This document shows, one piece after another, positions 4,568 to 51,595 of a stretch of 64,000 nucleotides of DNA. The stretch lies in contig WGMF01000028.1 in assembly GCA_016125215.1 (NCBI GenBank), positions 62,001 to 126,000 on the forward strand, written 5' to 3'. The position numbers and the translations under genes are program-made. Every line of letters starts with the position of its first letter. Within the stretch, counting starts at the first letter, position 1. The notes under the pieces are model-generated. The model had not been told where the DNA came from. It ran no database searches and saw nothing but the letters and a program-made list of their open reading frames with translations. This DNA comes from Phycisphaera sp. (GTDB lineage: Bacteria > Planctomycetota > Phycisphaerae > Phycisphaerales > Phycisphaeraceae).

Positions 4568-4641
4568 GTGCCACTGGCGGCTTGCCCGCCAGTATGAAAG
4601 CTCAACGACCCATGCACTGGCGGGCAAGCCGCCAGTGGCAC
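4568..4641. repeat. 74-bp palindromic repeat, ACTGGCGG...CCGCCAGT family
   Basis: Two perfect 26-bp inverted arms (4568-4593 and 4616-4641) flank a 22-bp centre. Each arm is itself a small hairpin: ACTGGCGG, loop GCAAG or CTTGC, CCGCCAGT, plus a GTGCC/GGCAC tail. The structure resembles a REP/BIME or MITE. The same unit recurs at both ends of the cassette at 28893-29806. Here it lies in the leader of the kelch-protein gene with no cargo. Confidence 0.85.
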
Positions 4642-10167: not shown

Positions 10168-10252
10168 CCCGCAAAAAAGCCCGGGGGAGTAAGCGCCCGG
10201 CTAAGCCCCGCTTACCGACTTGAGTGCTTGCGCACATGCCCGGGTGTTTTCC

Positions 10253-10258
10253 TACAAT
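10253..10258 (+). promoter_or_regulatory. Possible -10 element for the aldolase gene
   Basis: TACAAT lies 30 bp before the aldolase ATG. The best upstream hexamer, TTGCGC at 10228-10233, gives a long 19-bp spacer, so only the -10 match is reasonable. A hairpin GTAAGCG/CGCTTAC (10189-10215) lies just upstream and may end the recJ transcript, though no T-run follows. Confidence 0.3.
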
Positions 10259-10287
10259 ACGACTTCAACCTCACGGAGAACATCGCC

Positions 10288-11310: not shown

Positions 11311-11335
11311 AGGGGCCGTCCATCAAGGAGACACC

Positions 11336-27480: not shown

Positions 27481-28764
27481 ATGAGTTCTCCCAAAGAACC
27501 CCACTACGACCGTGACACGCTGCTCAAGCTCCTTGAGGTTGCCAAGGACCTTGGCCGACCACTTGAGTTGCAGGCGTTGCTCACACGCATCATCGACGCC
27601 GGCCGCAGTGTGCTCGGGGCCGACCGCGGTTCGGTGTTTCTCTACGACGACAAGACGCAGGAACTTTTCGTGAAGATCGCCACCGGATTGCGTGAGCTGC
27701 GATTCGGGATCGACAAAGGGATCGCCGGTGAGTGCGCACGCAAACGGCAGATCGTCAACGTGCCCGACTGCTACGCCGACGCCCGCTTCAACCAGGAGGT
27801 CGACAAGCGCACGGGCTACCACACGAAGTGCCTGATTGCGATCCCGCTCGTGGGATTTGATGACGAGTTGGTCGGGGTGCTGCAACTGCTCAACGCACGG
27901 AAAGGGCAATTCGACGAAAACGACGAACGCATCGCGGTGGCGCTCTCGTCGCAGGCCGCCGTGGCGATCCAGCGTGCCCGTCTCATGGACGAACGGCTGG
28001 TCAAGCTCAAGCTCGAACGCGACCTTGAGACAGCCAAAAAAATCCAACTCGGGGTGTTGCCCAAGGTGATCGAGCCTTGCGAGGGCTACGAGTTTGCCGG
28101 CCGGTCGCTCCCCGCCGAGCAAACCGGTGGGGATATCTACGACGTGGCCCCCGAGCCGGTCGGCGATGAAAACAACCGAAAAAAGGCCTGCCGACTGCTG
28201 CTCCTGGCCGACGCCACCGGGCACGGGATCGGGCCGGCCCTCTCCGTCACGCAGGTCCGGGCCATGATCCGCATCGGCGTAAGGCTCTCCTCATCACTCG
28301 ACACCCTCTTCCAACAGGTCAACAGCCAACTCCACGAAGACCTGTCGATGGAGCGCTTTGTCACCGCGTTCCTTGGTCGGCTCGACCCGGTCAAACACAC
28401 GGTCGAGTACCACGCGGCGGGACAGGGGCCGCTGCTCATCGTGCGCGCGGACGGCAAGGTCGAGTGGTTCAACGCCACGACGCTGCCGATGGGCATCATG
28501 CCCGACCCCCCCGGCGACGGGCTGCAGACCCTCCACCTCAACACCGGCGACATCCTGGCCCTCATCACCGACGGCTTCTACGAGTACCAGGACATCCACG
28601 GCAAGATGTTTGGCAAGGACCGCGTGAGCAACGTGATCGTCGAGACCCGCACACAGAGCGCCGAAAAGATCATGACCTCCCTGTTCGACGAGGTCCACCG
28701 CTTTGCCGAGAGCGCCCCGCAACTCGACGACCAGACCGCGTTGATCGTCAAACGGGTGGGGTAA
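27481..28764 (+). CDS. GAF domain-PP2C (SpoIIE/RsbU-type) phosphatase
   Basis: This 427-residue protein has a GAF sensor domain (about residues 20-180: GADRGSVFLYDDKTQELFV, KCLIAIPLVGF, AAVAIQRARL), a coiled-coil linker (KLKLERDLETAKKIQLGVLP) and a PP2C-type phosphatase domain. Metal-binding motifs are GGDIYDV, LLADATGHG, LITDGFYEYQD and the terminal LDDQTALIVK. Such proteins dephosphorylate anti-anti-sigma factors or similar partners in response to a GAF ligand. No anti-sigma partner is adjacent. Its stop lies just before a displaced copy of the ptsH 3' end. Confidence 0.9.
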   Translation: MSSPKEPHYDRDTLLKLLEVAKDLGRPLELQALLTRIIDAGRSVLGADRGSVFLYDDKTQELFVKIATGLRELRFGIDKGIAGECARKRQIVNVPDCYADARFNQEVDKRTGYHTKCLIAIPLVGFDDELVGVLQLLNARKGQFDENDERIAVALSSQAAVAIQRARLMDERLVKLKLERDLETAKKIQLGVLPKVIEPCEGYEFAGRSLPAEQTGGDIYDVAPEPVGDENNRKKACRLLLLADATGHGIGPALSVTQVRAMIRIGVRLSSSLDTLFQQVNSQLHEDLSMERFVTAFLGRLDPVKHTVEYHAAGQGPLLIVRADGKVEWFNATTLPMGIMPDPPGDGLQTLHLNTGDILALITDGFYEYQDIHGKMFGKDRVSNVIVETRTQSAEKIMTSLFDEVHRFAESAPQLDDQTALIVKRVG

Positions 28765-28773
28765 CTGCAACAA

Positions 28774-28797
28774 TCACTCTTCGTCGAACTTGCGGTC
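28774..28797 (-). pseudogene. Displaced 3' end of ptsH (attachment-site-like)
   Basis: On the minus strand these 24 bp read D-R-K-F-D-E-E-stop, identical in protein to the last residues of HPr at 29894-29917 but ending in TGA instead of TAA. It probably marks the original gene end, 9 bp from the stop of the phosphatase gene, before the cassette entered. Confidence 0.65.
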
Positions 28798-28892
28798 TAC
28801 GGCCAGTGAATTGCGTCACCGATTACTGCAGATTTTATATTATCCACAACGCGATGAGGTTCGTGTGTTCACATGCCTCCGTTGATCGATCA

Positions 28893-28940
28893 CACTGGCG
28901 GACGAGCCGCCAGTGGCACCCAGAGCCAGTGCCACCCGCC
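28893..28940. repeat. Left terminal inverted repeat of the cassette
   Basis: Begins CACTGGCGGACGAGCCGCC and continues AGTGGCACCC, then CCAGTGCCACCCGCC at 28926-28940. The reverse complement of both blocks occurs in the same order at 29735-29806. The first block matches the repeat unit at 4568-4641. Confidence 0.8.
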
Positions 28941-28986
28941 CGTAAGAGTGTTCCAAAAATCTGTATATCGAAACATCAACGTATCC

Positions 28987-29151
28987 ATGACAATCCATCA
29001 CCGCTTCCTCAGCCAGGCGGGGGGTGCATTGAACCCCCACCAGTTGGCCAATCTGGAAACCATGATGCCTTGGAGTCACGCGGCCATCGACCCAAACTAT
29101 CACACGGGTTACGAACTCATCAAGATATTAAATGGAACCAAGACATTTTAG
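28987..29151 (+). CDS. Small unrecognised protein in the cassette, upstream gene
   Basis: A 54-residue open frame from ATG 28987 (MTIHHRFLSQAGGALNPHQ ... ILNGTKTF). The frame extends further upstream, but that part is translated from the inverted repeat. No motif, signal peptide or membrane segment is seen. Its TAG stop overlaps the AGGAG ribosome binding site of the next gene, suggesting coupling. It may be a genuine small gene or the remnant of a longer one. Confidence 0.45.
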   Translation: MTIHHRFLSQAGGALNPHQLANLETMMPWSHAAIDPNYHTGYELIKILNGTKTF

Positions 29152-29164
29152 GAGCATTTGTGTA

Positions 29165-29689
29165 ATGATGGATATTAATACACCAGGCTATGACCCATCT
29201 GGAGAAGCAAGTAAGTTTCGTGGAAGTGTATTAATAGCCGCCATGAAAATATATAATGCTTCTTGTGGATGTCAAAATGATTATGACAAGTTCATGGGTC
29301 GGATTTGGTCGGACTATCAGAAGGCGGGAAAACCGCGTTCCAAGAACCGTTGGATAAGAGAGCGTCTGAAAGACGAGTTCCGCAGTGTGGACCAGCCCCC
29401 GGTGTGGGTCGGAGCCGAACCCAATTGGGCGTTTCACAACGGACAGCCCATGGTGTTTATTCATCAGACGCCGCTTATCCCAAAGAACGAAACTACTGAA
29501 AGCATGCTGGGTTATGGTGACGTGATTTACCTTTTTGGTGCACGAGTTCTATACAATGATGGGAGCTATCGTGTTGTATACAAGTTGATTGAAGAATCCC
29601 CCGATATCCCCGGTGCCACCGGTGTGCAGAGCAATCCGGTGTGGATCGGTAAACCGCCGTCAGGCATCAACGTTGCTGGTTCTGGATAA
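29165..29689 (+). CDS. Unrecognised 174-residue protein, cassette cargo
   Basis: The start at 29165 (MMDINTPGYDPSG) follows AGGAG at 29150-29154 by 10 bp; the frame opens at ATG 29132 but that lacks a binding site. The protein is soluble, with a basic middle (AGKPRSKNRWIRERLKDEFR) and an aromatic, beta-rich end (YGDVIYLFGARVLYNDGSYRVVYKLIEE). I recognise no family. Base composition, visibly A/T-rich with codons such as ATA and TTA, differs sharply from the genes on both sides, which supports foreign origin. Located between inverted repeats inside the ptsH-end cassette. Confidence 0.7.
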   Translation: MMDINTPGYDPSGEASKFRGSVLIAAMKIYNASCGCQNDYDKFMGRIWSDYQKAGKPRSKNRWIRERLKDEFRSVDQPPVWVGAEPNWAFHNGQPMVFIHQTPLIPKNETTESMLGYGDVIYLFGARVLYNDGSYRVVYKLIEESPDIPGATGVQSNPVWIGKPPSGINVAGSG

Positions 29690-29734
29690 CCCAATAAACA
29701 CATATAATTATCCGCCACACACCAATACCACGGC

Positions 29735-29806
29735 GGCGGGTGGCACTGGTAACTGGGTTCCACTGGAGGATTTCGCCGGGTGCCACTGGCGGCTTGTCCG
29801 CCAGTG
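29735..29806. repeat. Right terminal inverted repeat of the cassette
   Basis: GGCGGGTGGCACTGG (29735-29749) and, after a 30-bp insertion relative to the left end, GTGCCACTGGCGGCTTGTCC followed by GCCAGTG (29780-29806). These are inverted copies of the left-end blocks with one or no mismatches. Confidence 0.8.
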
Positions 29807-29893
29807 CGTGAGACGCACGGACGACGCGAGTGCAATTTCGCACACGGACCGGCGATGACATCGTCGGCTATATGTTGTGAAAAGGGTGTCCCT

Positions 29894-30178
29894 TTACTCT
29901 TCGTCGAACTTGCGGTCGACCAGCTCGCGCAGGGCTGTGACCGCGGCCTGGGCGTCGTCGCCCTCGGCTTCGATGCGCAGCTCGGTGCCCGTGACCGCCG
30001 CGAGCATCATCATCTGCATGATGCTCTTGCCGTCGACCGATTGCGTACCCTTGACGACACGGATGTCGGAGGAAAAAGTGTTGGCAACATCGACGAACGC
30101 CATCGCCGGCCGGGCGTGCAGGCCCAGCTTGTTCTGGATCGCCACGTTGATCTGGGCCGATCGGCCGGCGGTGTTCAA
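29894..30178 (-). CDS. ptsH: HPr phosphocarrier protein
   Basis: This 94-residue protein carries the phospho-acceptor His21 in GLHARPA and the regulatory-type Ser52 in GKSIMQMMML. It accepts phosphate from enzyme I and passes it to EIIA proteins. The start is TTG at 30178, supported by GGGGAG 6 bp upstream. It ends with the DRKFDEE segment duplicated at 28774. It lies downstream of hpf and ptsN on the same strand, an arrangement like the nitrogen-PTS cluster in proteobacteria. No enzyme I, sugar permease or HPr kinase is in the window, so a regulatory relay is likely. Confidence 0.92.
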   Translation of the reverse strand: MNTAGRSAQINVAIQNKLGLHARPAMAFVDVANTFSSDIRVVKGTQSVDGKSIMQMMMLAAVTGTELRIEAEGDDAQAAVTALRELVDRKFDEE

Positions 30179-32864: not shown

Positions 32865-35800
32865 TCAGGACAGCCACCACGTCAACATCGCCGCGGTATC
32901 GATCCAGCCGATCGGGAACTCGTCGGTCTCGATGTCGGAGACACCCAGGCGACGCAGGTAGGTGTAGCGCTCGAAGCTGCCGGAGTTCTGACCGGCGGAC
33001 ATGAGCTGGTATGAACCGACGGGCACGCTGTTGAAGACATCGGTGAGCGTGAGCTGCTCGGTGTGGTTGAGGCCCATCGTGTGGCCCAGCTCGTGCGCGG
33101 CGGTGTTGGCGATCGCGATGGCGGCGCCTTCGAGCGACGGGATGCCGAGATAGGCAAACGTGGCCTCGAAGATGATCGCCTCGTTCGAGTATTCCATGTG
33201 GCCCACGTCGATGTTGCTGGCAATCCCCAGCAGGCCGCCGGGGTAACCCAGGAAGATCGCGTCGTCAGCCCCACCGATGTAGAGCGTGGTGTAGTCCGTC
33301 GTCGGGTCGAGACCGTAGAGGGCCGGGTCCACCGTGGTGAAGTGCAACCCGCTTGCGAGATTGCCGATGTCACCCGAAAGCGACGAGAGGTCGGACGCCA
33401 GCAGCCGGTCCACGGTGAAGCTGCCGTACTGGCTCGTGAAGTTGGAGTAGATGTCGATCATGTTGTCGATGATGCCGGTGAACCCGACACCGCCGTTGAT
33501 CAACTCGTCTTCGTGCCCACCGAAACCGGGGGCGATGTTGGACGCATCGAACGCCGAGACGGGGACATCGACGCCGTAGTTGGCCTTGTACTGCGTCGCT
33601 GTGCCGCCGTTGAAGTTCACATAGACCAGCTGCGACGGGATGTTCTTCGTGTTGTTGACGTAACCGATCGTCACATCGTCGTATGGCGAGCCCGGGTTGA
33701 AGTTCAAATTCACACCGTTGATCGTGCCATCGAACACCGTGGCCAGGCCGGTGTCGGTCGAACTCAAGGCGAATTGTGCCTCGTAGCCCTGTCCGGCTTC
33801 GGTGATCCCGGTGGCGACAAAGACCACGTAGTATTCGCCCGAGTCCGGCAGCTCGATGCCCTGGAAGTCCTGGTTCGAGAAGCTGTCCCACGTGATGACC
33901 AGGTCGAAGTAGTCATCGCCGGTAGCCAGCGTGCCCTGCGTGTCACGGAAGAAGATGCCCATCTTGCCGGTGAACGATTCGGTCGAGGTGATGCCCGCGC
34001 CGAGGTACTGGCCGGCGATGCCGTCGATCCGGAAGATGTCGATATCGGAGTCGTTCTCGAAGTTGGCGGTGAAGGTAAAGATCGGACCGTCGAGGACGAT
34101 CGGCTGTTCATTACCGACCAGGTCTCGGACGTCCTCAAAGCTGTCGGGCTGGTCGGTATTGCCGATGCGTACGACATAACTGCCGCCCTCGACGCCGTCC
34201 TTGTCGCCATCGAGGATCGTGCCGCGTGCGTCTTCGCCTGCGTCCTGGGTTCCGTCCCGGTTCCAGTCACGCTGGGCCGACCTCAGGCCGGTGCGGTCGA
34301 CAATCGTCGGGGCCGTGAGGTTGCCCGAGAGCGTGATCTCGAGGAACTCAGCGGTGAAATCGGTCGGGCTGGTGATCGTGAGCACGCCCAGGACCTTGCC
34401 GTTGGCGTCGGTCGTCGTCGAATAGGAGAGCGTGAGGTTGTTCAGGACATTGCCCTGGTCATCGACAACCAGAACACTGCCCGGTGTGTCGCCTACGTCG
34501 TCGACATCGCCGTCGCCGTTGTTGTCCTGCGCGAGCACGAACGAGTTGGAGATCAGTTCCTCTGTGAAGACCGACTGGACCTGCGAGGCACTGGTGAAGG
34601 TGGTGTAGATGACCTGCGGCGCACCGAGCGGGTCGCCGTAGGCCCGCGTGGTAATCAGGCCCACCGTCGGGCCGGTCAGGTTTTTGATCGTGTCTGCCGC
34701 CGCCACGACCGAGCCCAGCCCGATGCCGTTGACGTTGCCCAGCACACTGAGCTGATCGATTCGGCTGGGGAGGATACCGCCGGCCTCCGCCGAGTCGGTC
34801 TTGTTCAAGTCGGGGTTGCCCGGTGAGCCGGTGTAGTAGAGATTCGACGTCGGCCGACCCGTGCCCGCCACCGCCGTCGGCAACACGCCGGCGACAATCG
34901 CGCTGCCGTTGAAGACCCCCGAGACCGTCGCGGCGCTGATCGTGCCGCCGGTGATCTCGTCGTCATCGGTGTTGTAGACGCCGTCCGCCCCGACGGTCGT
35001 GCCGACGCTGACCACCGAACCGGTCATGGACGTGGCGGAGAAGTTCGTGAGGTTTTCACCCACGACAATCAGGGCGTAGGCCAGGTTGCCCAGTTGCGCG
35101 GTCGTGACGCCGTTGGTTGCGTAGATCTCGCCGTTGATCGTGCCGAGCACCTTGAGCGTGGCGACCGGGCCGAAGAAGTTCATCACCGAGGTGACCGCCG
35201 CGCCCACGGTGACGGAGACGAAGTTGGTCGCGCCGTTGACCGTCAGGCTCGAATCCCGTGCCAGCGAACCACTGACCACAATCGAACCCGCCGAGCCGAG
35301 CGTCACGTGGCCGAGCAGCGACGCCACCGACACGCTCGAAGCGTAGCCGTTGACGAGCAGCTCGCCCATCATGCCGAGGTTGCCCTTGATGTTGAACGTC
35401 TCGGCGTACTCCGCAACGACCCGGCCGTTCATCGCGGTCGAGGCGGTGGGCATCGAGAAGTTCTTGAGCGTCCCGCCGGCCTGGATGAGCGCACCGGTCA
35501 AGACCGATCCGCCGGTGATCGTGACGCTGACCAGGTCGCCCGCGGCCTGCATGACGCCGCTGAAGTTGCCGCCGGTCTGTGCGTAGCTGTTGATCGAGCC
35601 TTGCGTGACCAGTTCGCCCGAGAACGAGCCGGCTACGGTGACGGTGTTGAACGTGTTGCCCGTGGCCTCGACGCGGCCGGCAAAATCACCGCCGCCGGTG
35701 ATCTGCAGCGCGTTGTAAGAGTCCGCGATCAGGCCCGCCTGGTCCGTGCCCGATATGCGGTAACGGGTGAAGTGGTCGGTCGAATCATTGAACGACCGGA

Positions 35801-38800
35801 GCGTGCCCGTGGTGTCGTTGAAGTCCAGGCCGTTGAGGATCGTCGTGTCAAACGATCCGGGCAGGATCGCCGAGCCCTGGGCCGTGGTGGTGTCGATCAT
35901 CACCACGGTACTCAGGCGTGAGTCAAGCCCGAGCAGGCGGCCGTTGGTGTTGTCGTAGCTCAGGGCGCGGAGGGTCAGCGCCACGCCGGAGCTGGCGTCG
36001 GTCAGGGTGCCGATCGCACCGGCCCCGACGAGCGAGCCGTCGGCCGTGTCGTATTCGTAGAGCTTGCCGGTCGAGGTGGCCACGTAGGCGTGGTCCGTGG
36101 CGGTGTCGATCGTGAAGCCGCGCACCGAGGACGTGATCGGCAAACCGGAGGTGTCTTTGGCCAGGGTCTTGACCCGTGTGAAGACGCCGGTGGTCGTGTT
36201 GAGCGAGCCGAGCACCTCAGCCAGGCCCGCCGATGCGTACAGCGTGCCCGAGCCGGCGTTGTCGATGGCCAGTGTCCTGCCGGTCGCACCGACGACGAAC
36301 TGGTCCAGGTCGCCCGACAGCGCATTGGCCGCGGTGATGCGTGTGGCGCTGCCGGGGGCGGGCGCTGTGAACTTGATGAGTTCCGCCGTCGCACCGGTCT
36401 TGTTCAGGGCGACGAGATTGCCGGCGTAGTAACCCAGGCCGACGATGTTGGTATCGACCCCGCCGACCTTCACGGTGCCCAGCACGGTGCGTGTGACCAC
36501 GGTGCTTGCGCCGGAACCGCCGAACTGCAGACGGACGAGGATGTCCTGACCACCGACACGCTCGATCGCGTAGAAGCGGTCACTGAGCGAGGGGTGACGG
36601 GTCATGGCGACGTAGGTGTTGGTCACGCCGCCGCCGTTGATGAGCACGCCGGGGAAGAAGAGCGACGAGGGGCTGGAGACCTCGACGACACCGTTGTTGT
36701 TCACGTCGCCCAGTTCGACCTGGACGAGAGCCGCACCGTTGGCGGAGGTGTAGGTCGTGCCGGTGCCGTCACGGTCGTTGACGATGCCAAAGAGCTTGGT
36801 CCCGTCGGGGCTGGTGGTCAGGGCCTGGAAGTTGCCTGAATAAGACTGGCCGAAGATGTCTTCGAGGTTGCCCAGCACGGTGACGGCGGCGGTGGAGCCG
36901 TTGATACGGATCAATCGGTCGGTGCCGGTCGAGGAATCGATGGCGAGGATGTTGCCGTTGCGGTCGTCGGTCGATGCGGTAATGTTCAGGCCCGCGACGG
37001 CCAGCGACCCGATCACCGTGGTCGGGCTCTGGTCGAAGACCGACGCGGTGGCAAAGAGGTTGCCAACCGAGTCGAAGTCCAAACCCGAGAGCGTGATGGC
37101 CGAACCGGTTGCCTCATCGGTGACGCTCACCGGGGCGGTGAGGTCTGCACCGGTCACGGGGTTGACCTGCCGCAGGGTCTTGGCGACGGAGTCGAAGACC
37201 CACGTCTGCCCGATCGAGTCGGAAGCCAGCAGCGAGATGTTCGCGGTCGAGCTGGCGCCCTCGGCGACTGTCAGGCCGGCCCGGTTGCCCTGCTGGAGGA
37301 TGGCCGTGGCAATCGAGCCGCCGACGACGAATGTGCCGCTGCCGAGCGTGCGGAGCTGGAAGGTGCCGACGTTGCCGCCGATCTTCCCGTCGGCGTTGTT
37401 GCCGATGTCACGCACAGCAAAGGTCGTCACCGGGCCGTCGATCCAGATGTCCGGGTCGGCGGTGCCGTCGCCGATGATGTCGCCGTCGAAGCTGAACTTG
37501 GAGAGCGAAATATCGTCGGTGCTCAGGACGCGTCCGATGCTCACCGCGCCGGGCGTCGTGGAGGTCACAACGACCTGCGTGTTGGGGTTGGTGCCAACAA
37601 GGATGAGCGTATCCACGACGTTACCCGCCAGAACATCGTCACGGACCTGCACGCTGCCCGTGCCGGTGACGGTGACGGTGATCCCGCCGTAGGTCACGGG
37701 CGAACCCTGGACCGCCGTGCCCACGAGCGGTTCGATCGGGTTGTTGGATGAGATGTCCTGCGTCGCAAAGCTGTAAGCCACGTTGGCAATGACCGTGCCG
37801 CCGGCCAACGTGGTGCGGTTGCTGACGAAGCCCGTGTCGGCGATGACGAACGAGCCGGCCCCGACCGCCGCCACGATGTCATTGATATAGCTGCGACCGC
37901 CGGTGACGGAGGACTTAACGTTGTTGAGGTCCGCGCTGCTGCCCGCGACGGCGTCGTTGAAGCTGCCGTCGTCGCCGGGGCTGACGCCGGCCACGACCGA
38001 ACTGCCGGTCATCGCGCCGGTGATCGAGACGCTGGACATCAGGCCGTTAAACAGCGTTGCGCCGCCGCGCAGCGTGTTGCGGTCGCTCGACGAAGCGAGG
38101 CTCAACGTGCCGTCGAGCACGTCGTCCAACCGGTTGCCGTTGAGCACGAGGCCGCTGGTGAGCGAACTGTTGGTCATGGCCCCACGGATCACCGCGGTGA
38201 CCACGTCGCCACCCGCCGAGACGACGGAGTTGACCATCGAGCCCACGTCGAACGTGGTGAGCTTGCCGCGCCGCCTCAGGGACTGCGCATATTCATTGGC
38301 GTCGTTGCGCGAGGCACCGACCTGCACGAGGCCGGCCGTCATCGCGCCGCTGACGGTGAGGTTCACCAGGTCCAGCCCGGTGATGATCTTGGCTGAACTG
38401 ACCGAGCCGGCGGTGATAAGCTTGGCGGCGCCGTCGACAAGGACGTTGGAAGCCAGCGCCCCGGTGACGCGCAGCTCGTTGAGGTCGCGGCCGACCGAGA
38501 GCGTCGAGCCGGCCACCGTTGAACCGGAGACCTTGACCACGCTGTTGGCGTTGATCGAAACGGTCGTGCCCGAGGTGCCGAGGTTTCCGCCGACGGTCAG
38601 GAAAGTCGGCGTCGTGCGGTAGCCCCACGTGGCGTCGCCGGCGTAGTTGCCGACCGTGGTAAAGCTCGAAACGCTGCCGGCGTTGATCGTCGCGCCATAG
38701 GCGACCGAACCGACGATGGCCTGAGTCAATTCGCCGGCAATGTTGAATGTCACGCCGCCCTTGATGATGCCGGCGACGATAAGCACGCCCAGCGAGTCCG

Positions 38801-41800
38801 CCAGGATTTCCAGAGGTGTCGAGCCGTCGCCGATGTCCGACCCGGAGGCGACTTCGAGGCGGAGGATATTGCCCTGCATCGCCTTGACCGGTCCGAAGAG
38901 GTCGCCGTTGATGATCTTGACCAGTTCGATGTTGCCAAAGGCGCTGACGATGCTGCCCGCGGTGGTCACGTTGCCGTTGGTCACGACGACAGAGCCGATG
39001 CGGTCGCCCACGAGGATGCCCGAGGCGATGTGGCCGTTGGTCAGCGCCAAGGCGCCGAGCTGGTTGCCGACGTGAATCCCACCGACGATGTTGCCGCCGG
39101 AGATCGCGGCGTTGCTGAGCGAATTGCCCACGTCGATGATGCCCTGCAACAGCGAAGCGCTTGAGAGGGCGTCCTTGGCCACGATGAGGTTGAGCAGGTT
39201 GCCGCCGACGAAGATGTCGCCCCGGACTTCACCGGTGACGTTGACCGAGCCGACGTCGCCGGTGACGGTGAGGGTGAGCACGAGGGCGTCGCCGTTGGAG
39301 GTCGTGTCGTTGCCGACGATGAGCGAATTGAGATTGCCGGTGACGTTGAACGTGTCGCTGGCGGAGAGGCCCATGGTCTTGCGGACCTCGACGGTGCCGA
39401 CGTTGCCCAGGATGGTGGCGGTGCCGAAGTAATTGCCACTGACCTTGAAGTAGCTCAGCGCCAGGTTGCCGGCGAGGAGCTTGGCGCCGTTGATGGTGAG
39501 CAGGCCGACGAAGTTGCCGCCGACGATGAGGTTCTTGATCGCGTTGGTGGCAAAGATCGTGCCGTCGAAGTTGCCCGTGACGGTGACGTCGAAGATCGTG
39601 CCGTCGGGCCCGATGGCGGAGATGGACGAATCATTGCCCAGGTCGCCGTTGATATAAATCGACGTGATCGGCCCGGAGACGGTCAGGTCCAGCCCATAAA
39701 CGGAAGCCCCGGGGAGGAAGCCCGCGAGGCTGCCGGTGACGACCTTAAGGTCGTTGATCGTGGAGGTGGTCTTGATCGTGCCGATCTTGTTGGCAAAGTT
39801 GAAGGAGACGGGCGCGAGCGGGTTGGTGGCCCGGATGAGATAAGCCGTGACGTTGCCCAGGTCCTGGCTGGCGTAAGCCACGACGTCTTCGATGACACCG
39901 GCGGTGGTGACCGGCGGGATCGAGGGCATGGCCTCGCTGGTGCCCAGCCACGCGTGCAGGTCGTTGGGGAAGGTGAGCAATCTGCCGGAGAAGGGATCGT
40001 AGGTCTGGTTGCGGCTTTGGCGGACGCTGGTGGTGAAGTTCGTCGCGGGCAGCGAGGCACCGGTGAGGTTGGTCGCGGTGATGTTGCGTTGAACCGCACC
40101 GCCATTGAAGCTCACCGTGCGCAGGCCATAACCATCGACCGTGACATCGCCGATCGTGCCCTGGTTGGCCACGACGAAGTTGGCTTCGATCAGGCCGAAC
40201 GACCCGTTGGACAACGTGATCGGGCCGATGTCCGGCGCGGTGATGTTCGTGCCGATGATCCCGCCCTTGCCGCTGAGGTTGATCGACCCGATGTCGAACG
40301 TGGGGAAGTAGGGGTTCTCGTCCTGGGGCAATCCAAACGCGGCGCTATAGAGTTCGCTCACGCCCGTGAAGTCGGGGATGACAGCGATATCGGTGTCGAT
40401 GATGGCGCCGTTGTTGAGGTTGATGCTGCCGATGCCGGTCTGGCTGACGACGTGGCCGCGGATGTCCGAGCCTAAGCCGGTGTTGATCACAGTGCCGAGC
40501 TGCCCAACGACATACAGGCCGGTCTTCTCGAACTCGCCGGTGCCGCTGGAGGGCAGGCCGGCACCGATGTCGATCTTGTTGACCAGGCCCTCGACGTAGA
40601 CGGGCGCGGTGATGCCGTCGAACGAGCCGGTTGTGTTGGGTTTCTTATCGAGGTCAGCGGCGATGGTGTTCACGTCCCCGCCGACCATGATGTTGCCCAG
40701 CGCGCCGGTGGCGTACATCTCGCCGACGTTGCCCGAGAACATGATGCCGTTGGTCTGCTGGAGGAAGGGGAAGGCATTGGCAATGGCGTTGCCGGTGACG
40801 TCGGTGTCCTGCGTGAGGATGACGCCGCCCGCGGTGGACTTGGCAATGCCCAGCGAGCCGGCGACGATCTTGCCGGTGGAGACCGCGTCCACGGTGATGA
40901 TCTCGCCCAGCGTGTTGTTCTCGATGGAGGAGAACTGCCCGCCGGTGATCTTGTACACGTCGGTCTTGGCGCCGTAGACGAAGAAGTAGATATCGTCTTC
41001 GGTCGAGGTGGTCGAGAGCGCGACGTTGCCTGTGGTCTCATCGGTCTCGACGGGCTTGCCGCCCTCTGTGGGCAGGATGGCCTGGCTGATCTCGACGTGC
41101 TGGGAGGTCTGGAGGGTGCTGGTGTCGACCTTGACGCCGCCGGTGCCGGTGACGTTGAGCAGGACCGACCCGCCCGACCCGCGGATGCCGTAGGTCATGT
41201 ACGACAACTGCGTGGGCAGGAACTTCTGCGAGCCGTAGACGTTCTGGTCGTAGTCGGGGTTGGGTGTGCCGATGGGGGTGAGCGTGAAGCGTCCACCCGA
41301 GTCATCGACGAGCTGGATCGCCTGACCCTCGTTGAGGATCGTGGGCTGGATGGGCAGGCTCGAGCCGAAGAGCGAGTCCTGATACATCAGACCGCCGGCG
41401 TGAATATAGCGGACGTTGCCGCCCGGGCCGGTGGTGATCTGCGGGCCACCCCCGGCGCTCGTGCCCATCTGTCCGAGCACGTCGATCAGATCGACAAACC
41501 CGTCGTTGCCGACGAGGTCGGAGTTGACGGTGATCTTGAATGCAGACGTCGCCGCCATGTTGCCCGCACGGATCGTACCGACGCCCCTGCCGGCGCTCAG
41601 GTCGAGCATGAGCATGGTCTGGCCTTCGCCCGCGGCGTAGGCGTCCAGGGCCTGGACGTCCACGTCCGAGTGGAACCTGTACCAATAGGAGTCCCCCGTG
41701 AACGCCTCGGCGATGCCGACGCTGCCCCCGAGCGCGGAGAGCACCATACCGTTGCTCAAACTGCGTCCGAACTGGTCCGCCATGACCGCGCGGATGGTGC

Positions 41801-44800
41801 CGGCGTCGGTGCGGATGCGGTCGGCGGGTTGAAATGCGGCGTTGTACTCAAGCCTTGCGCTCATCGAGCCGGCGGTCCACACCGCGCCCAGGTCGCCCTT
41901 CTGGACAAGAATAGCCGCGTCCGTCGAGTCGTGGAACCAGGTGTCGTCGGCGGTGTCACCGGTCTGGTACCCGCCCAAGGCCACGTTGCCCAGCCCACTG
42001 AGTTGCAGGTAGTAAGGGAACGGCCCAAGAACGCGCGTGACACTCTCGCCCGCATCGGCGCTGCCGTTGAAGTTCACGTCACCGGGCCACGCCACCGCAA
42101 CCCGGTAAAGCCCCGGTCGGTCGGCTGTGAATTGGAAGGCCTGGTTGGTGTAGCTGCCGTCGTAGTTGGAATAATCCGTGGCAATCAGCCTGCCGTCGGG
42201 GTCGATGATGCCGACTTGCAAAAACGGCGGCGGTTGAATGGTGATAAGTTGCACCGTGACGGTCTGGCCGGCCATCAGCGAGACGCCGTAGTAATCGACA
42301 TCGTCCGAGACGAACCCGTTCAACTGACCGACCAGGCTGTAACCCGTAGCCGGTGCCCCGACCGCGGTGGACATCACGCCCAGTATCTGCGGCGTGTCAA
42401 ACGAATCGTTGACGGAAAGGTTGGCGGTGGCCGCGTCGGCGATGTGGCCCCGCTCGAAAGCCGACCCCTCGCTCTCACCGGGGTTGAGCCGGTATTCGAA
42501 CTCGGTGTCGAGGTAGTTGAGCGGGCCAAGCTTGCTCGATGCGTTGTTGACCACGTCGATCTGGCTGATGTTCGAGCCGATCGTGTGGACCCAGCCGGCG
42601 CGACCGCCGACCTGGATCTCCGTGCCGGTCTGGAAGACCGTGGACGTGCTGGCCGAGTTGCCGCCGATGGTTTGGAGTGTTGCGAGGTTGCGCAGGTCGC
42701 CGCCGATGTGGAAATTGTTGTAGAGCGGCGTGTTGTAGTACGTGCTTGTCGGTGCGGTTTGGGTCGGGGTGAAACCGTTGTAGGGCGAGGTGAACAGCCC
42801 GGTCATCCCGTCGCTCTTGCCGGTGATCAGCCAGCCGGCGTAGAACGTGTCGACCGAGCCGGAAATGTCGACGATGCCCGTGACGGTGCCGCCGAAGAAT
42901 GCCTTGGCGAGGTTCTGCGGGTCTTCCGTCAAGGTCGTCACGCCGTTGAGCTTGAAGAGCGCCGACGACGCCAGGCCGGTGTGCCCGATCTCGAGCGCAC
43001 CAAAGGCGTTGTCCACGGCATACCACGAGTTGGTGGCGCGGTTGTACGAGATCGCGCCGACACTGGTGCGCAGCGAGCCGTCGGTGGTCTGTACCGTGGC
43101 ACCCGCGACGGCGGTGGTGAGGTTGATGTTGACCAGTCGGCCGTGCGAACGGTCATGGGCCAGGAGCCTGCCGGTGGCGTCGAAGTCCATCGAGGCGATG
43201 TCGAGGGTGCTGCCGGTGTTGTCCACGACGGTGCCGATGACCGAGATCACCGCGCCGGTATTGGGGTTGATCTGAATCAGGCGGTTCTGGTCGTCGACGA
43301 TGTAGAGCTTCTGGCTGCTGGTGAAGGCCATGGCCTTGACACCGGTGATCCCGCCGCCCAGGGCGCGCTGGGACTTGAAGCTGCCCGTCCCGCCGATCAC
43401 GCCCAGCGTCGGCGTGCCGGATTTGTCGTAGATGGCGTAAAGCTCTTCGACACCATCGAAGTTCAGGTCGCCAAAGTCCATCGCCTGCGCACCGAGCAGG
43501 CCGGAGTTGCCGTTGAGCGGGTCGGTCACGCTCAGGAGGATCGTGCCCGTGCCGTCGGTGCTCGAGAGGATGGCCAGTTGGTCAGACGTGGTGGACGCAC
43601 CGAACTGGTCGGTGCCATCGGAGTCGAGGGCGTAGATCACACCGTTGCGGGCGATCGAGACGTTGTTGACCCGTGCGAAGAAGTCATCAATGACACGGTC
43701 GTTGACGGTGTAAGCCGACCCGATGTTCGTCGAGACATAGCGCATCAGGCTCGAGGTCATGCGGACGCCGGAGAAGACGTCGTAATCGGTAATGCCGGTG
43801 TCCTCGCTCACGTCGTCGACGAGCCTGCCGCGCGTGTTGAACTGGATCAGTTGTCCACCGCTGTAGTCCGTCGCGGTGGTGCCGTAGAAGTAGGGGATAT
43901 TCGGCCGGGGGTCGCCGGCATTGATGCGTGCGGCGGTGGTGTTTTCGGTCCGGGCACCGATGTAGAGGCTGCCGACGCCGGTCGGGCCGGTGATGTCGAC
44001 GCGCCCGTCGTCAGCGGTGCTGCCGTTGCCCTGGCCGGGGAGGATGCGCAGCGTGCCCGCGTTGCCGGTGTAGGGGATCATGCCCTTGCCGGCCGCGGTG
44101 ATCTGCGAGATGAAGATGCCGCTGTTGTCGTCGAGCGAACCCTGTGTGAGATAAATCTGGAAAAGGTCCGCTTCGGGGAAGCGTGGCGTCGGGTCGATGT
44201 AGAGTAACTCGTCCGTGCCGACATCCGAGCCGACAAGCACGCCCGTGCCGCCAGAGAACGGGTCGGTCAGGACGGGGTTGTAGGTGATCCCTCTGACATG
44301 CTGTCCGCGAGCCCCGGTCTTGGTTTCGGGCATAGGCCCAAGGACATAGAGTGTGCCCGTGGAGATGCGGATGCGCACGAGCAGCGCGTCCGCGCCGCTC
44401 CCCTGCACGCCGAAGAAGAAACCGCTCCTGCCCGGTATCGCGACCATCGAATCGATGTCTGTAACCGTAGCCCCCTTGAGCGAAACCGCGATCGCACCGG
44501 CCGTTGTGCCGTTGGCGGTGTTGATCGTAAAGAGTTGGCCCGCGGTGCCGAAGCCGTAGAGTGCGTTCCCGCCGTTGACATCGAAGGCGATAGCATTGAC
44601 GTCTTTGCGATTGATGGTGGCCTTGAGGGTCAGGGAGTTCTGGATGCGGGCGCGTGAGCCGGCGGAAACATCGATCGTGTAAAGCCCGTCGTTGTTGGTG
44701 CCGTCATCAGCGACAAAGTAAAGCAGGCCGTCGTCAGGGTTGAAGTCCGCGCCGACGATGTCGCCGATCGTCGTGGCGCCGGTGGTGTCGTCGGTGGGGA

Positions 44801-46361
44801 GCTTGATCGTCGAGCCGAGGATCACCGACGTGCCGTCCGTGGAGTAGAGCAGCGGCCGGGTATCGCCGGGGTTGATGTAGCTCGACAGGCCCTTGACGGG
44901 CGAGACCATGCCGGCCTGGTCGAGGAGCTTGGTGGAGGCGTCGACAAACGACATGCTCACCAGCCGCGCGGAAATCAGGGAGGTCTGGTTGTTGACCAGC
45001 GAGTGATCGACACCGACAAGTAACAGGTTGTTATTGATGTCCAGCGAAACCGCCAGGCCCTCGATGTCCAGGCCCGTGATCACGCCCACCGTCGAGAGGT
45101 TGATCTGTTCAAATGCGCCGCCGGCAAAAGGCAGCACGGTCATTCGGCGCAGGGTGTCGGTGTTGGTCCCATCCTGAGCCACGACACGGGAGACCGCAAA
45201 GAGCGCACCGACGTTCTGCTTGCCCGCGATGGTCTGGAACGTCATCGCGGTGAAGTCGTCGTGGAACTGCTGGCCGTTGTCGAGAATGAGTTGGACATCG
45301 TCATCGGTGAATGTGGCGGTCGCCGGGTTGCTGATGCGGACCAGCGCCGCCTCGTTGACGTTTTGGTCGACGATGTCGGGGTCGGGGACGTTGGTCGGGT
45401 CGTAGTCCTGCGTGAGGATGAAGAGCGTGCCGGAGGAGTTGAACGCCATCGCCTTGACGTTGCGCAGGGCCGCGCCGTCGGAGGTGTTGGTGATCGTGGC
45501 GGCTGCGCCGACGGCACCGGTGGCGGTGTCGACGGAAACGATCTGGCTGCCCGCGCTCTCGTTTTCGATGATCGCGTAGGCCTGCCCATTGACCGGGTTG
45601 ACCGCGAAAGCCTCGACGTTGCCCAGCGCGGTCGAAAGGGCCGCGGGTCGGTCTTCACGCAGCGTCGCCTGATGCACCACCGCCTCAACCTGCGCGTTGG
45701 CGGAGGTGTCGGTCGTGCCGAATGAGTCGGGGGTGTCGAACTCGACAAGCTGGATCAACGGCCGGGCGGAATTGGCAATCGAACCGTTGCCGAGGTTGAA
45801 GCCGTAGATGTGCCCGCCGTTGGCAGCCGACTGCGACGCGATGGCGGTGACATTGATATTGGCGCTGGCGGCTGTGAACGACTGTGTAATGTCGAGTTCG
45901 TCAAGGTTCAGGGCATTGGCCGCGTCGTTTTCGACGTCGGTGATATCGGTCGTGCCCACGCCCTCGACGCCGTCCTGCCCGCCCAGCCCGCCGCGCGAGG
46001 ACGCCCCGCTGCGCCCGGTCAGGTCGCTCGACGTAATCACGCCGGGCATGTCGCCCAGCAGCAACTGGTTGAGGTCGTCGATGTCGGAGGCGATGAGTTC
46101 CGCGATCAGATCGCCCGTGGTCGTGACGCGGATGATGTCGCCGTTGGCCGCGACGTATTCAAAAGAGTCCCCGCCGATCAACGTGGTCAGGAGCAGGCGT
46201 GGCTCGAGGGTTTCGATCTGGCAGTCGGCGTGCGAAAACGTGGGGTTGGAAAGGCCATCGATCGGTTTGGATCGTTGTTGCCTCGACAGCTTGCGTCGGT
46301 TGAATACCCGTCTGGCTTTGGCGTTCCAACGTTCCCAACGGCGACGACGACGGTTCCACAT
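32865..46361 (-). CDS. Giant LEPR-XLL surface protein with C-terminal metzincin-like protease site
   Basis: This 4498-residue protein starts with a basic, Arg-rich stretch and the planctomycete sorting motif LEPRLLL at residues 52-58. Then come a beta-propeller-like region (about 150-1250, with repeated LYxID, VDTATGAV and AMAFNSSG units), a pre-peptidase-like domain (about 1350-1460), long Gly/Val-rich repeats resembling beta-helix rungs (about 1500-3040 and 3550-3880), a second propeller-like part (about 3040-3550) and another pre-peptidase-like domain (about 4060-4200). The last 290 residues contain HELGHTMGLNH (4423-4433), a metzincin zinc site, and LMSAG as a Met-turn candidate. GGAGG 8 bp before ATG supports the start. 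It is probably exported and cell-surface bound. Confidence 0.9.
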   Translation of the reverse strand: MWNRRRRRWERWNAKARRVFNRRKLSRQQRSKPIDGLSNPTFSHADCQIETLEPRLLLTTLIGGDSFEYVAANGDIIRVTTTGDLIAELIASDIDDLNQLLLGDMPGVITSSDLTGRSGASSRGGLGGQDGVEGVGTTDITDVENDAANALNLDELDITQSFTAASANINVTAIASQSAANGGHIYGFNLGNGSIANSARPLIQLVEFDTPDSFGTTDTSANAQVEAVVHQATLREDRPAALSTALGNVEAFAVNPVNGQAYAIIENESAGSQIVSVDTATGAVGAAATITNTSDGAALRNVKAMAFNSSGTLFILTQDYDPTNVPDPDIVDQNVNEAALVRISNPATATFTDDDVQLILDNGQQFHDDFTAMTFQTIAGKQNVGALFAVSRVVAQDGTNTDTLRRMTVLPFAGGAFEQINLSTVGVITGLDIEGLAVSLDINNNLLLVGVDHSLVNNQTSLISARLVSMSFVDASTKLLDQAGMVSPVKGLSSYINPGDTRPLLYSTDGTSVILGSTIKLPTDDTTGATTIGDIVGADFNPDDGLLYFVADDGTNNDGLYTIDVSAGSRARIQNSLTLKATINRKDVNAIAFDVNGGNALYGFGTAGQLFTINTANGTTAGAIAVSLKGATVTDIDSMVAIPGRSGFFFGVQGSGADALLVRIRISTGTLYVLGPMPETKTGARGQHVRGITYNPVLTDPFSGGTGVLVGSDVGTDELLYIDPTPRFPEADLFQIYLTQGSLDDNSGIFISQITAAGKGMIPYTGNAGTLRILPGQGNGSTADDGRVDITGPTGVGSLYIGARTENTTAARINAGDPRPNIPYFYGTTATDYSGGQLIQFNTRGRLVDDVSEDTGITDYDVFSGVRMTSSLMRYVSTNIGSAYTVNDRVIDDFFARVNNVSIARNGVIYALDSDGTDQFGASTTSDQLAILSSTDGTGTILLSVTDPLNGNSGLLGAQAMDFGDLNFDGVEELYAIYDKSGTPTLGVIGGTGSFKSQRALGGGITGVKAMAFTSSQKLYIVDDQNRLIQINPNTGAVISVIGTVVDNTGSTLDIASMDFDATGRLLAHDRSHGRLVNINLTTAVAGATVQTTDGSLRTSVGAISYNRATNSWYAVDNAFGALEIGHTGLASSALFKLNGVTTLTEDPQNLAKAFFGGTVTGIVDISGSVDTFYAGWLITGKSDGMTGLFTSPYNGFTPTQTAPTSTYYNTPLYNNFHIGGDLRNLATLQTIGGNSASTSTVFQTGTEIQVGGRAGWVHTIGSNISQIDVVNNASSKLGPLNYLDTEFEYRLNPGESEGSAFERGHIADAATANLSVNDSFDTPQILGVMSTAVGAPATGYSLVGQLNGFVSDDVDYYGVSLMAGQTVTVQLITIQPPPFLQVGIIDPDGRLIATDYSNYDGSYTNQAFQFTADRPGLYRVAVAWPGDVNFNGSADAGESVTRVLGPFPYYLQLSGLGNVALGGYQTGDTADDTWFHDSTDAAILVQKGDLGAVWTAGSMSARLEYNAAFQPADRIRTDAGTIRAVMADQFGRSLSNGMVLSALGGSVGIAEAFTGDSYWYRFHSDVDVQALDAYAAGEGQTMLMLDLSAGRGVGTIRAGNMAATSAFKITVNSDLVGNDGFVDLIDVLGQMGTSAGGGPQITTGPGGNVRYIHAGGLMYQDSLFGSSLPIQPTILNEGQAIQLVDDSGGRFTLTPIGTPNPDYDQNVYGSQKFLPTQLSYMTYGIRGSGGSVLLNVTGTGGVKVDTSTLQTSQHVEISQAILPTEGGKPVETDETTGNVALSTTSTEDDIYFFVYGAKTDVYKITGGQFSSIENNTLGEIITVDAVSTGKIVAGSLGIAKSTAGGVILTQDTDVTGNAIANAFPFLQQTNGIMFSGNVGEMYATGALGNIMVGGDVNTIAADLDKKPNTTGSFDGITAPVYVEGLVNKIDIGAGLPSSGTGEFEKTGLYVVGQLGTVINTGLGSDIRGHVVSQTGIGSINLNNGAIIDTDIAVIPDFTGVSELYSAAFGLPQDENPYFPTFDIGSINLSGKGGIIGTNITAPDIGPITLSNGSFGLIEANFVVANQGTIGDVTVDGYGLRTVSFNGGAVQRNITATNLTGASLPATNFTTSVRQSRNQTYDPFSGRLLTFPNDLHAWLGTSEAMPSIPPVTTAGVIEDVVAYASQDLGNVTAYLIRATNPLAPVSFNFANKIGTIKTTSTINDLKVVTGSLAGFLPGASVYGLDLTVSGPITSIYINGDLGNDSSISAIGPDGTIFDVTVTGNFDGTIFATNAIKNLIVGGNFVGLLTINGAKLLAGNLALSYFKVSGNYFGTATILGNVGTVEVRKTMGLSASDTFNVTGNLNSLIVGNDTTSNGDALVLTLTVTGDVGSVNVTGEVRGDIFVGGNLLNLIVAKDALSSASLLQGIIDVGNSLSNAAISGGNIVGGIHVGNQLGALALTNGHIASGILVGDRIGSVVVTNGNVTTAGSIVSAFGNIELVKIINGDLFGPVKAMQGNILRLEVASGSDIGDGSTPLEILADSLGVLIVAGIIKGGVTFNIAGELTQAIVGSVAYGATINAGSVSSFTTVGNYAGDATWGYRTTPTFLTVGGNLGTSGTTVSINANSVVKVSGSTVAGSTLSVGRDLNELRVTGALASNVLVDGAAKLITAGSVSSAKIITGLDLVNLTVSGAMTAGLVQVGASRNDANEYAQSLRRRGKLTTFDVGSMVNSVVSAGGDVVTAVIRGAMTNSSLTSGLVLNGNRLDDVLDGTLSLASSSDRNTLRGGATLFNGLMSSVSITGAMTGSSVVAGVSPGDDGSFNDAVAGSSADLNNVKSSVTGGRSYINDIVAAVGAGSFVIADTGFVSNRTTLAGGTVIANVAYSFATQDISSNNPIEPLVGTAVQGSPVTYGGITVTVTGTGSVQVRDDVLAGNVVDTLILVGTNPNTQVVVTSTTPGAVSIGRVLSTDDISLSKFSFDGDIIGDGTADPDIWIDGPVTTFAVRDIGNNADGKIGGNVGTFQLRTLGSGTFVVGGSIATAILQQGNRAGLTVAEGASSTANISLLASDSIGQTWVFDSVAKTLRQVNPVTGADLTAPVSVTDEATGSAITLSGLDFDSVGNLFATASVFDQSPTTVIGSLAVAGLNITASTDDRNGNILAIDSSTGTDRLIRINGSTAAVTVLGNLEDIFGQSYSGNFQALTTSPDGTKLFGIVNDRDGTGTTYTSANGAALVQVELGDVNNNGVVEVSSPSSLFFPGVLINGGGVTNTYVAMTRHPSLSDRFYAIERVGGQDILVRLQFGGSGASTVVTRTVLGTVKVGGVDTNIVGLGYYAGNLVALNKTGATAELIKFTAPAPGSATRITAANALSGDLDQFVVGATGRTLAIDNAGSGTLYASAGLAEVLGSLNTTTGVFTRVKTLAKDTSGLPITSSVRGFTIDTATDHAYVATSTGKLYEYDTADGSLVGAGAIGTLTDASSGVALTLRALSYDNTNGRLLGLDSRLSTVVMIDTTTAQGSAILPGSFDTTILNGLDFNDTTGTLRSFNDSTDHFTRYRISGTDQAGLIADSYNALQITGGGDFAGRVEATGNTFNTVTVAGSFSGELVTQGSINSYAQTGGNFSGVMQAAGDLVSVTITGGSVLTGALIQAGGTLKNFSMPTASTAMNGRVVAEYAETFNIKGNLGMMGELLVNGYASSVSVASLLGHVTLGSAGSIVVSGSLARDSSLTVNGATNFVSVTVGAAVTSVMNFFGPVATLKVLGTINGEIYATNGVTTAQLGNLAYALIVVGENLTNFSATSMTGSVVSVGTTVGADGVYNTDDDEITGGTISAATVSGVFNGSAIVAGVLPTAVAGTGRPTSNLYYTGSPGNPDLNKTDSAEAGGILPSRIDQLSVLGNVNGIGLGSVVAAADTIKNLTGPTVGLITTRAYGDPLGAPQVIYTTFTSASQVQSVFTEELISNSFVLAQDNNGDGDVDDVGDTPGSVLVVDDQGNVLNNLTLSYSTTTDANGKVLGVLTITSPTDFTAEFLEITLSGNLTAPTIVDRTGLRSAQRDWNRDGTQDAGEDARGTILDGDKDGVEGGSYVVRIGNTDQPDSFEDVRDLVGNEQPIVLDGPIFTFTANFENDSDIDIFRIDGIAGQYLGAGITSTESFTGKMGIFFRDTQGTLATGDDYFDLVITWDSFSNQDFQGIELPDSGEYYVVFVATGITEAGQGYEAQFALSSTDTGLATVFDGTINGVNLNFNPGSPYDDVTIGYVNNTKNIPSQLVYVNFNGGTATQYKANYGVDVPVSAFDASNIAPGFGGHEDELINGGVGFTGIIDNMIDIYSNFTSQYGSFTVDRLLASDLSSLSGDIGNLASGLHFTTVDPALYGLDPTTDYTTLYIGGADDAIFLGYPGGLLGIASNIDVGHMEYSNEAIIFEATFAYLGIPSLEGAAIAIANTAAHELGHTMGLNHTEQLTLTDVFNSVPVGSYQLMSAGQNSGSFERYTYLRRLGVSDIETDEFPIGWIDTAAMLTWWLS

Positions 46362-51540: not shown

Positions 51541-51578
51541 TGGTCGGCTGCGTGGCAATTATTCGTCGTCGTCATTGA
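51495..51578 (+). pseudogene. Relic of a PEP-CTERM gene 3' end
   Basis: In a frame different from both neighbouring genes the DNA reads SGPTVVPEPASAVVLMVGC followed by VAIIRRRH and a TGA stop, a complete PEP-CTERM signal. A TAG stop lies just upstream in the same frame and no start codon or body exists. It appears to be the surviving tail of a deleted family member between proteins 2 and 3. Confidence 0.75.
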
Positions 51579-51595
51579 CCCAAGGAGAACCACTG

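What the first reader, a model, noticed from the sequence alone, without database searches (positions are those of the whole stretch)
28776..29917. Cassette flanked by a duplicated ptsH gene end and terminal inverted repeats, without a recombinase
Seen: 22 identical bp (28776-28797 and 29896-29917) are the final codons of ptsH, and the left copy still encodes DRKFDEE and a stop. Between them lie inverted repeats (28893-28940, 29735-29806) and low-GC DNA. Known: elements that integrate at the 3' end of a gene often restore it and leave such a duplication, and tyrosine recombinases do this at tRNA genes. Inference: this is a small non-autonomous element using a protein gene end as target. The repeat ends belong to a family also present at 4568-4641.
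Basis: partly seen in the sequence, partly recalled or inferred. Interest (0 to 1): 0.85.

Follow-up and report, generated by a model that had tools for sequence, protein, structure and literature searches.

The report
Toxin-immunity remnant beside duplicated ptsH end
A short, probably foreign stretch that seems to hold the tail of a bacterial warfare toxin and its antidote gene sits next to the gene ptsH, whose last 25 or so letters are repeated on the far side; the inverted repeats in it are a common scattered repeat of this genome, so the repeated gene end is the only real sign of how the stretch got there.

Summary
The 22-bp repeat is exact and extends to 25 of 27 bp (eight codons plus stop) with two silent differences. 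The reading needs revision. (1) The inverted repeats are not element ends but members of a REP/REPIN-like family: 140 pattern matches in this genome, 27 of 27 close pairs (among 100 listed places) in one orientation, and a REP-associated transposase gene (RAYT) on another contig flanked by the same repeats. Window 4568-4641 is a complete doublet. (2) The cargo can probably be named: ORF1 resembles the last ~50 codons of an Rhs/HINT polymorphic toxin and ORF2 its immunity gene. Another genome has a similar orphan pair; one query found no parent toxin in the own genome. Cargo GC is 47.6% against 62.7%. (3) No empty site was found. In the relatives examined the phosphatase never directly follows ptsH, none shows a convincing repeat, no tyrosine integrase lies on this contig, and two viral-contig scans for the gene end found nothing. 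The duplication thus looks like the scar of one insertion, so far seen only here. Integration at the gene's 3' end, by a recombinase now absent, is my leading reading (0.45). Homology-anchored illegitimate recombination remains open.

The parts
27481..28764 (+). GAF + SpoIIE-type protein phosphatase (PP2C) gene, converging on ptsH
   Evidence: Pfam SpoIIE 2.5e-38, GAF 3.8e-21; 9 bp between its stop codon and the left ptsH-end copy
28774..28800 (-). Left copy of the ptsH end: 8 codons plus TGA stop; 22 bp identical to the real gene end
   Evidence: no ptsH similarity beyond it
28893..28942 (+). REP-type palindrome plus tail, single unit, tail facing the cargo
   Evidence: 28893-28940 folds as two hairpins, z -3.6
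28987..29151 (+). ORF1, 54 aa: resembles the C-terminal tip of an Rhs/HINT polymorphic toxin, cut short next to the REP
   Evidence: similar to the C-terminus of a PT-HINT/Rhs-like protein in G038 (E 4.1e-5 per genome, 392 genomes searched) and to tips in G019 and G029; reverse search with the G038 piece hits ORF1, E 1.5e-4
29165..29689 (+). ORF2, 174 aa: probable immunity protein; AGGAG 10 bp upstream, overlapping the ORF1 stop codon
   Evidence: no Pfam or NCBIfam match; weak relatives in three other planctomycete genomes of 392 searched and one right after the orphan toxin tip of G029
29735..29806 (-). REP-type palindrome plus tail, single unit, tail facing the cargo
   Evidence: z -2.2, 7 of 200 shuffles fold as well
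29894..30178 (-). ptsH (HPr), intact; 29896-29917 is the right copy of the repeat
   Evidence: Pfam PTS-HPr 4.4e-29
4568..4641 (.). Complete REPIN-like doublet of the same family, no cargo
   Evidence: folds into one long hairpin, -38.8 kcal/mol, z -11.1

Best explanation
Shown: the spacer between two convergent genes holds (a) a duplicated ptsH end, (b) two single REP-type repeats of a genome-wide family, and (c) between them a low-GC two-gene stretch that resembles an Rhs-type toxin tip followed by an immunity gene. Inferred: the toxin-tip/immunity piece came in horizontally as one insertion that crossed over at the 3' end of ptsH, leaving ptsH intact and its former last codons beside the phosphatase. 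The form fits integration of a small circle at a conserved gene end by a tyrosine-type recombinase that is now absent or was supplied from elsewhere. The REPs came into the spacers through RAYT activity, independently of the insertion. The immunity gene may still protect the cell against a toxin of neighbours.
For: Exact 22-bp repeat at the very end of a conserved gene, with unrelated sequence on both sides of each copy, which a simple tandem duplication does not give. Both copies keep codons and stop with silent differences. Cargo GC 47.6% against 62.7%. Cargo similarity to toxin tips and to an orphan tip-plus-immunity pair in another genome. With one toxin piece as query the own genome gave only ORF1. 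The REP family and its RAYT explain the inverted repeats. The genome does hold an island of the usual kind: an 18-bp repeat, one copy inside tRNA-Ser, with two PF00589 matches between the copies.
Against: No tyrosine integrase on the contig. No second copy of the ptsH end in any of the 13 other pattern-positive genomes among 301, and no convincing one among 80 loci. No integrase similarity downstream of ptsH in the 80 loci: five matches in four loci, all on the other side of ptsH; the queries were only integrase-region frames of the own genome. Two scans of viral contigs for the 24-bp end, exact and degenerate, found nothing. The empty site was never seen. Flanking repeats of 17 bp or more were found around integrases in only 2 of 9 stretches of this genome, so such scars are not the rule here. 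The toxin-tip and immunity similarities are weak one by one. An assembly error cannot be excluded without reads.
Confidence: 0.45

Rival explanations
1. Homology-anchored illegitimate recombination: foreign DNA carrying a relative's ptsH followed by the toxin-tip/immunity pair recombined with ptsH on one side and joined illegitimately on the other, inside the resident ptsH, leaving its last 8 codons as the left copy. No recombinase and no circle needed.
For: Silent differences between the copies (GTA/GTC, TGA/TAA) are what two orthologous gene ends would show. No integrase on the contig and no sign of a hot-spot in relatives.
Against: The break would have to fall by chance within the last ~25 of 285 bp of ptsH. 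ptsH of this genome shows no clear sign of being foreign, though that comparison has little power (the best relatives stand at about 65-73% identity).
Confidence: 0.33
2. Older gene duplication: a second ptsH once stood beside the phosphatase and was destroyed by deletions and insertion of the cargo, leaving about 25 bp.
For: The left copy is a coding gene end with a stop codon.
Against: No trace of ptsH beyond 25 bp, yet 22 bp are untouched. It needs several steps. None of the 41 genomes lists two neighbouring ptsH genes: three have a second match, each in a frame of 831-880 codons far from the first or on another contig.
Confidence: 0.12
3. The 1.1 kb is a REP-bounded element moved by the RAYT, with the REP units as ends.
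For: A RAYT gene flanked by the same REPs exists, and four short elements on contig C48 have REPs at both ends and an interior similar to RAYT ends (the 3' end by eye). REP units within 3 kb of each other are not rare: 12 neighbour pairs 61-3000 bp apart among 100 listed places.
Against: Orientation is opposite: '+ cargo -' here, '- gene +' around the RAYT and in 27 of 27 close pairs. The ptsH-end copies lie 95 and 89 bp outside the REPs. I recognised no other gene-end duplication in ten stretches around REPs (not checked gene by gene).
Confidence: 0.05

Closest known systems
REP / REPIN elements with RAYT (REP-associated tyrosine transposase)
   Same: Short palindromes in >100 copies, many as inverted doublets, with a RAYT gene flanked by the same repeats
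   Different: The two units flanking the cargo are single, not doublets; the foot reads GGTGCC rather than the GT[AG]G quoted for canonical REPs (PMC6006769, passages)
Orphan Rhs toxin-tip/immunity modules (e.g. Salmonella rhs orphans, PMC3967940, abstract and passages)
   Same: Toxin C-terminal fragment, directly followed by an immunity-type gene
   Different: Not next to a main rhs gene; no parent toxin found in the genome with one query; tip only ~50 codons
rAID (recombinase-associated acquired interbacterial defence) clusters of Bacteroidales (PMC12247911, passages including part of the abstract)
   Same: Orphan immunity genes as acquired cargo
   Different: No tyrosine recombinase, no gene array
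Integrative elements at gene 3' ends (from general knowledge)
   Same: Direct repeat of the gene end on both sides, gene left intact
   Different: No integrase; only 1.1 kb; one case; empty site not seen

Membership tests
REP/REPIN | Palindromic, high copy number | tested here: met
   140 matches with up to 2 mismatches in the own genome, reversed-pattern control 0. A slightly shorter pattern: 12 of 51 family genomes including the own one; three of the 12 have only 3 matches, and the reversed control gave 1 match in each of 4 genomes
REP/REPIN | Inverted doublets as a usual unit | tested here: met
   54 of the 100 places listed (of 140) lie in 27 pairs no more than 60 bp apart, all '-+'
REP/REPIN | RAYT gene flanked by the same repeats | tested here: met
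   C53: REPs at 879-906 (-) and 1523-1550 (+) around a protein over the NF047646 cut-off, 89.7 against 80 bits
REP/REPIN | GT[AG]G foot | tested here: not met
   Foot reads GGTGCC by my reading of the matches; so I call the family REP-like in this respect
REP/REPIN | The two units around the cargo are themselves doublets | tested here: not met
   Only single palindromes at 28893 and 29784
REP/REPIN | Extragenic location | not tested
   the REPs read here lie between genes, but no genome-wide count was made
Orphan Rhs tip/immunity module | Fragment homologous to the C-terminus of an Rhs/HINT toxin | tested here: met
   G038 protein with PT-HINT 6.7e-17 and an Rhs core below cut-off (17.5 against 32.5 bits); 43% over 51 columns. 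The E-value 4.1e-5 is per genome in a search of 392, so the evidence is moderate
Orphan Rhs tip/immunity module | Adjacent gene is an immunity gene | tested here: inconclusive
   ORF2 has no family match; a relative follows the orphan tip of G029 (27% over 51 residues, E 9e-6 for the pair)
Orphan Rhs tip/immunity module | Toxin and immunity activity | not testable with these tools
   needs expression
Integrative element at a gene 3' end | Direct repeat of the gene end, gene left intact | tested here: met
Integrative element at a gene 3' end | Integrase in the element | tested here: not met
   no PF00589 match on C14; serine recombinases not searched
Integrative element at a gene 3' end | Empty site in a relative | tested here: inconclusive
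   no relative examined has the phosphatase directly after ptsH
Integrative element at a gene 3' end | Circular or excised form | not testable with these tools
   needs reads or PCR

The most novel reading that the evidence does not exclude
A minimal mobile cassette, about 1.1 kb, that carries one orphan immunity gene with a toxin tip and inserts at the 3' end of ptsH through a recombinase supplied in trans: a planctomycete counterpart of recombinase-associated interbacterial immunity, with a housekeeping gene end as attachment site.
Probability: 0.2. Interest if true: 0.65.

Novelty: new member of a known kind. Interest (0 to 1): 0.3.

Why it matters
If the insertion reading holds, ptsH would be a protein-gene attachment site, for which my one paper search (ptsH, attB, integrase and genomic island together) found nothing in the library held, and single orphan immunity genes would be seen to travel as very small units outside recombinase-bearing arrays. 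Even if it was a one-off accident, the locus shows how dispersed REP repeats can make an ordinary insertion look like a transposon with inverted ends, and it records a REP/RAYT family and orphan toxin-immunity pairs in a little-studied planctomycete group.

Tried and rejected
REPs as element ends: disfavoured (orientation, copy number, position 95 and 89 bp inside the ptsH-end copies).

Tandem duplication of one block: rejected as a single step, because neither flank of the repeat is duplicated.

Residual ptsH sequence behind the left copy: none above shuffles.

Second copies of the ptsH end in relatives: four of 80 loci had 18-20 of 24 matches downstream (L143, L152 and L158 with 18, L154 with 20). 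I read only L154: four of 24 bases differ and no stop codon follows. I count all four as chance without a computed rate. In the earlier set, L038 had 17 of 24. Seven of the 80 loci hold under 1 kb after ptsH and test little.

Integrases near ptsH in relatives: five best matches in four loci (L112, L116 twice, L143, L144), all upstream of ptsH; queries were own-genome frames only.

Attachment core in viral contigs: 0 stretches. Plasmid search with ORF2: one unconvincing match, E 0.2; the phage collection was not searched. Genome-contig scan with ORF2: 20 pattern matches, none confirmed.

Structure of ORF2: mean pLDDT 37, not usable, no fold search made. Rfam on 28700-30000: nothing up to E 1. 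Promoter and terminator scan: 2 and 3 sites, near the shuffled means of 1.2 and 1.6. Mosaic test on ptsH: no power.

Direct repeats around the weak ORF2 relatives (L060, L061, L062, L208): none to 12 bp; chance level not computed for them.

My first REP pattern was mis-typed and found nothing in the window; one search has the right one.

Full report
Setting. The window is G000:C14:62001-126000 in a 4.04-Mb, 58-contig genome, 98% complete; the relatives and family lists held no other genome of its genus. Named loci from relatives are mostly Phycisphaeraceae/Phycisphaerales metagenome assemblies. Gene order: phosphatase (+, GAF and SpoIIE domains), spacer block, ptsH (-), ptsN (-); hpf-like and DUF502-like genes follow (my names, from recall; used as labels).

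The repeat. The 22-bp repeat is exact and is the end of ptsH. Read on the ptsH strand, the left copy spells V-D-R-K-F-D-E-E-TGA and the right copy V-D-R-K-F-D-E-E-TAA; the valine codons are GTA and GTC. The similarity stops on both sides: comparing the next 20 to 60 bases of the left copy with the ptsH body, 38-60% of 500 shuffles scored as well. Chance does not explain the repeat: the longest direct repeat at 300-5000 bp in 30 simulated windows was 13-16 bp. One other direct repeat in the real window is longer (26 bp, 52191/53314) and was not examined.

The inverted repeats. The two units at 28893 and 29784 share a 23-bp palindrome and a tail with a further 15-bp motif. A pattern of palindrome plus tail matches 140 times in this genome with up to 2 mismatches, 0 times reversed; a slightly shorter pattern matches in 12 of 51 family genomes, the own one included, three of them with only 3 matches, while the reversed control gave one match in each of four genomes. 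Of the 100 places listed, 54 form 27 pairs at most 60 bp apart, all in '- +' order; 12 further neighbour pairs lie 61-3000 bp apart (four '--', three '+-' including ours, three '-+', two '++'). Window 4568-4641 is a complete doublet and folds into one long hairpin. On contig C53 a gene that passes the NCBIfam REP-associated tyrosine transposase cut-off (89.7 against 80 bits) stands between two of these palindromes. This is the REP/REPIN/RAYT arrangement described for other bacteria (PMC3116915 and PMC6006769, passages seen). The foot, GGTGCC by my reading, differs from the GT[AG]G given there. REPs in Planctomycetes are mentioned in PMC3733652 (passages). DNA between two complete '- +' doublets is flanked by '+ ... 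-' units by construction. Here both units are single, so their order is one of the possible ones and not a signature; only three of the 12 wider neighbour pairs listed have it. The inverted ends are therefore no good evidence for an element.

The cargo. Between the REPs lie 792 bp at 47.6% GC, lower than any of 632 windows of 800 bp. ORF2 has a plausible ribosome-binding site overlapping the ORF1 stop (read by eye). ORF1 matches, at E 4.1e-5 to 3.4e-4 per genome in a search of 392 genomes, the extreme C-termini of proteins in G038 and G019 and a fragment in G029; five further genomes had weaker matches (E 0.026-0.034). The G038 protein has a pretoxin HINT domain (6.7e-17) and an Rhs core below cut-off, and the next frame is SUKH-like (25.1 bits, cut-off 25.4). 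The G019 protein also has a HINT domain (7.9e-14). In G029 the tip is an orphan fragment and the next frame is similar to ORF2 (27% over 51 residues, E 9e-6 for the pair); no REP was found in that locus. Three other genomes hold weak ORF2 relatives; I noticed no tip beside those that I read (L060, L061). With the G038 toxin piece as query the own genome gave one match, ORF1 itself; that is one query at one sensitivity. I read the cargo as an orphan toxin-tip/immunity pair, of the kind described for Salmonella rhs loci (PMC3967940, abstract and passages). The similarity is weak in each single comparison; the adjacency in G029 is what persuades me.

Relatives. ptsH was found in 39 of 41 genomes, the own one included. 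In 29 loci from that search (L010-L038, mostly with 1.5 kb after ptsH) and 80 from genome contigs (up to 10 kb), partly the same genomes, no phosphatase directly follows ptsH; two of the 80 have a phosphatase-like match 2.2 and 6.2 kb away (L180, L121). Seven of the 80 have under 1 kb of downstream DNA. For the eight relatives with both a listed ptsH locus and a strong full-length or split phosphatase match (G004, G007, G011, G016, G018, G020, G021, G024) the two genes lie on different contigs. Of 301 genomes of the order, 14 match the degenerate gene-end pattern and only this genome has two matches; the pattern misses most ptsH genes, so this is a limited test. Thus the order phosphatase-ptsH, the repeat and the cargo all appear private to this lineage in the data at hand, and the empty site cannot be tested.

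Mechanism. The product (intact gene, gene end repeated beyond an insert, flanks not duplicated) is what integration at a gene 3' end gives. The genome does carry a conventional example: an 18-bp repeat, one copy inside tRNA-Ser, with two PF00589 matches between the copies, on contig C31 (L195); of nine integrase stretches, two had a flanking repeat of 17 bp or more. But no tyrosine integrase lies on C14 (serine recombinases not searched), none was found downstream of ptsH in the 80 loci, and two scans of viral contigs for the gene end found nothing. An alternative without any recombinase, homology-anchored illegitimate recombination with DNA from a relative, would also give two orthologous gene ends with silent differences; it needs a chance break in the last 25 bp of ptsH. 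I put these at 0.45 and 0.33. A single paper search for ptsH, attB, integrase and genomic island together found no paper in the library held; that is not proof that nothing is in print.

Verdict. The direct repeat is a real scar; the inverted ends come from REP-type repeats; the cargo is an orphan toxin-tip/immunity pair in my reading. A new member of known kinds, of moderate interest, with one open question (the insertion mechanism) that a same-genus genome would settle.

Noticed in passing
G000 contig C48 (L070), about 1075-1271, 4958-5150, 6705-6900, 10414-10606: Four short elements with REPs at both ends; the interior matches the 5' end of the C53 RAYT gene (77% over 56 bases) and by eye its 3' end. 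[quoted passage not shown]
   Followed up: partly
L195 (G000:C31:140000-155754), 5980 and 15103: 18-bp direct repeat, one copy inside tRNA-Ser(TGA), with two integrase matches between: looks like an ordinary tRNA-targeted island.
   Followed up: partly
window 51509-54028: Direct repeats of 26, 18 and 16 bp with CCCCGA(A/G)CCGGC units at ~1.1-2.5 kb spacing; not examined.
   Followed up: no
window 32865-46361, - strand: A 4498-aa open frame with a zinc-protease-like HELGHTMGLNH motif near its C-terminus (motif recognised from recall).
   Followed up: no
L208 (G029), about 1489-2227: Orphan toxin-tip fragment followed by an ORF2-like gene, without REPs in the locus.
   Followed up: partly
L072 (G000:C4) 10159-12000: A duplication at ~1.37-kb spacing with exact repeats up to 76 bp, REPs included.
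   Followed up: no
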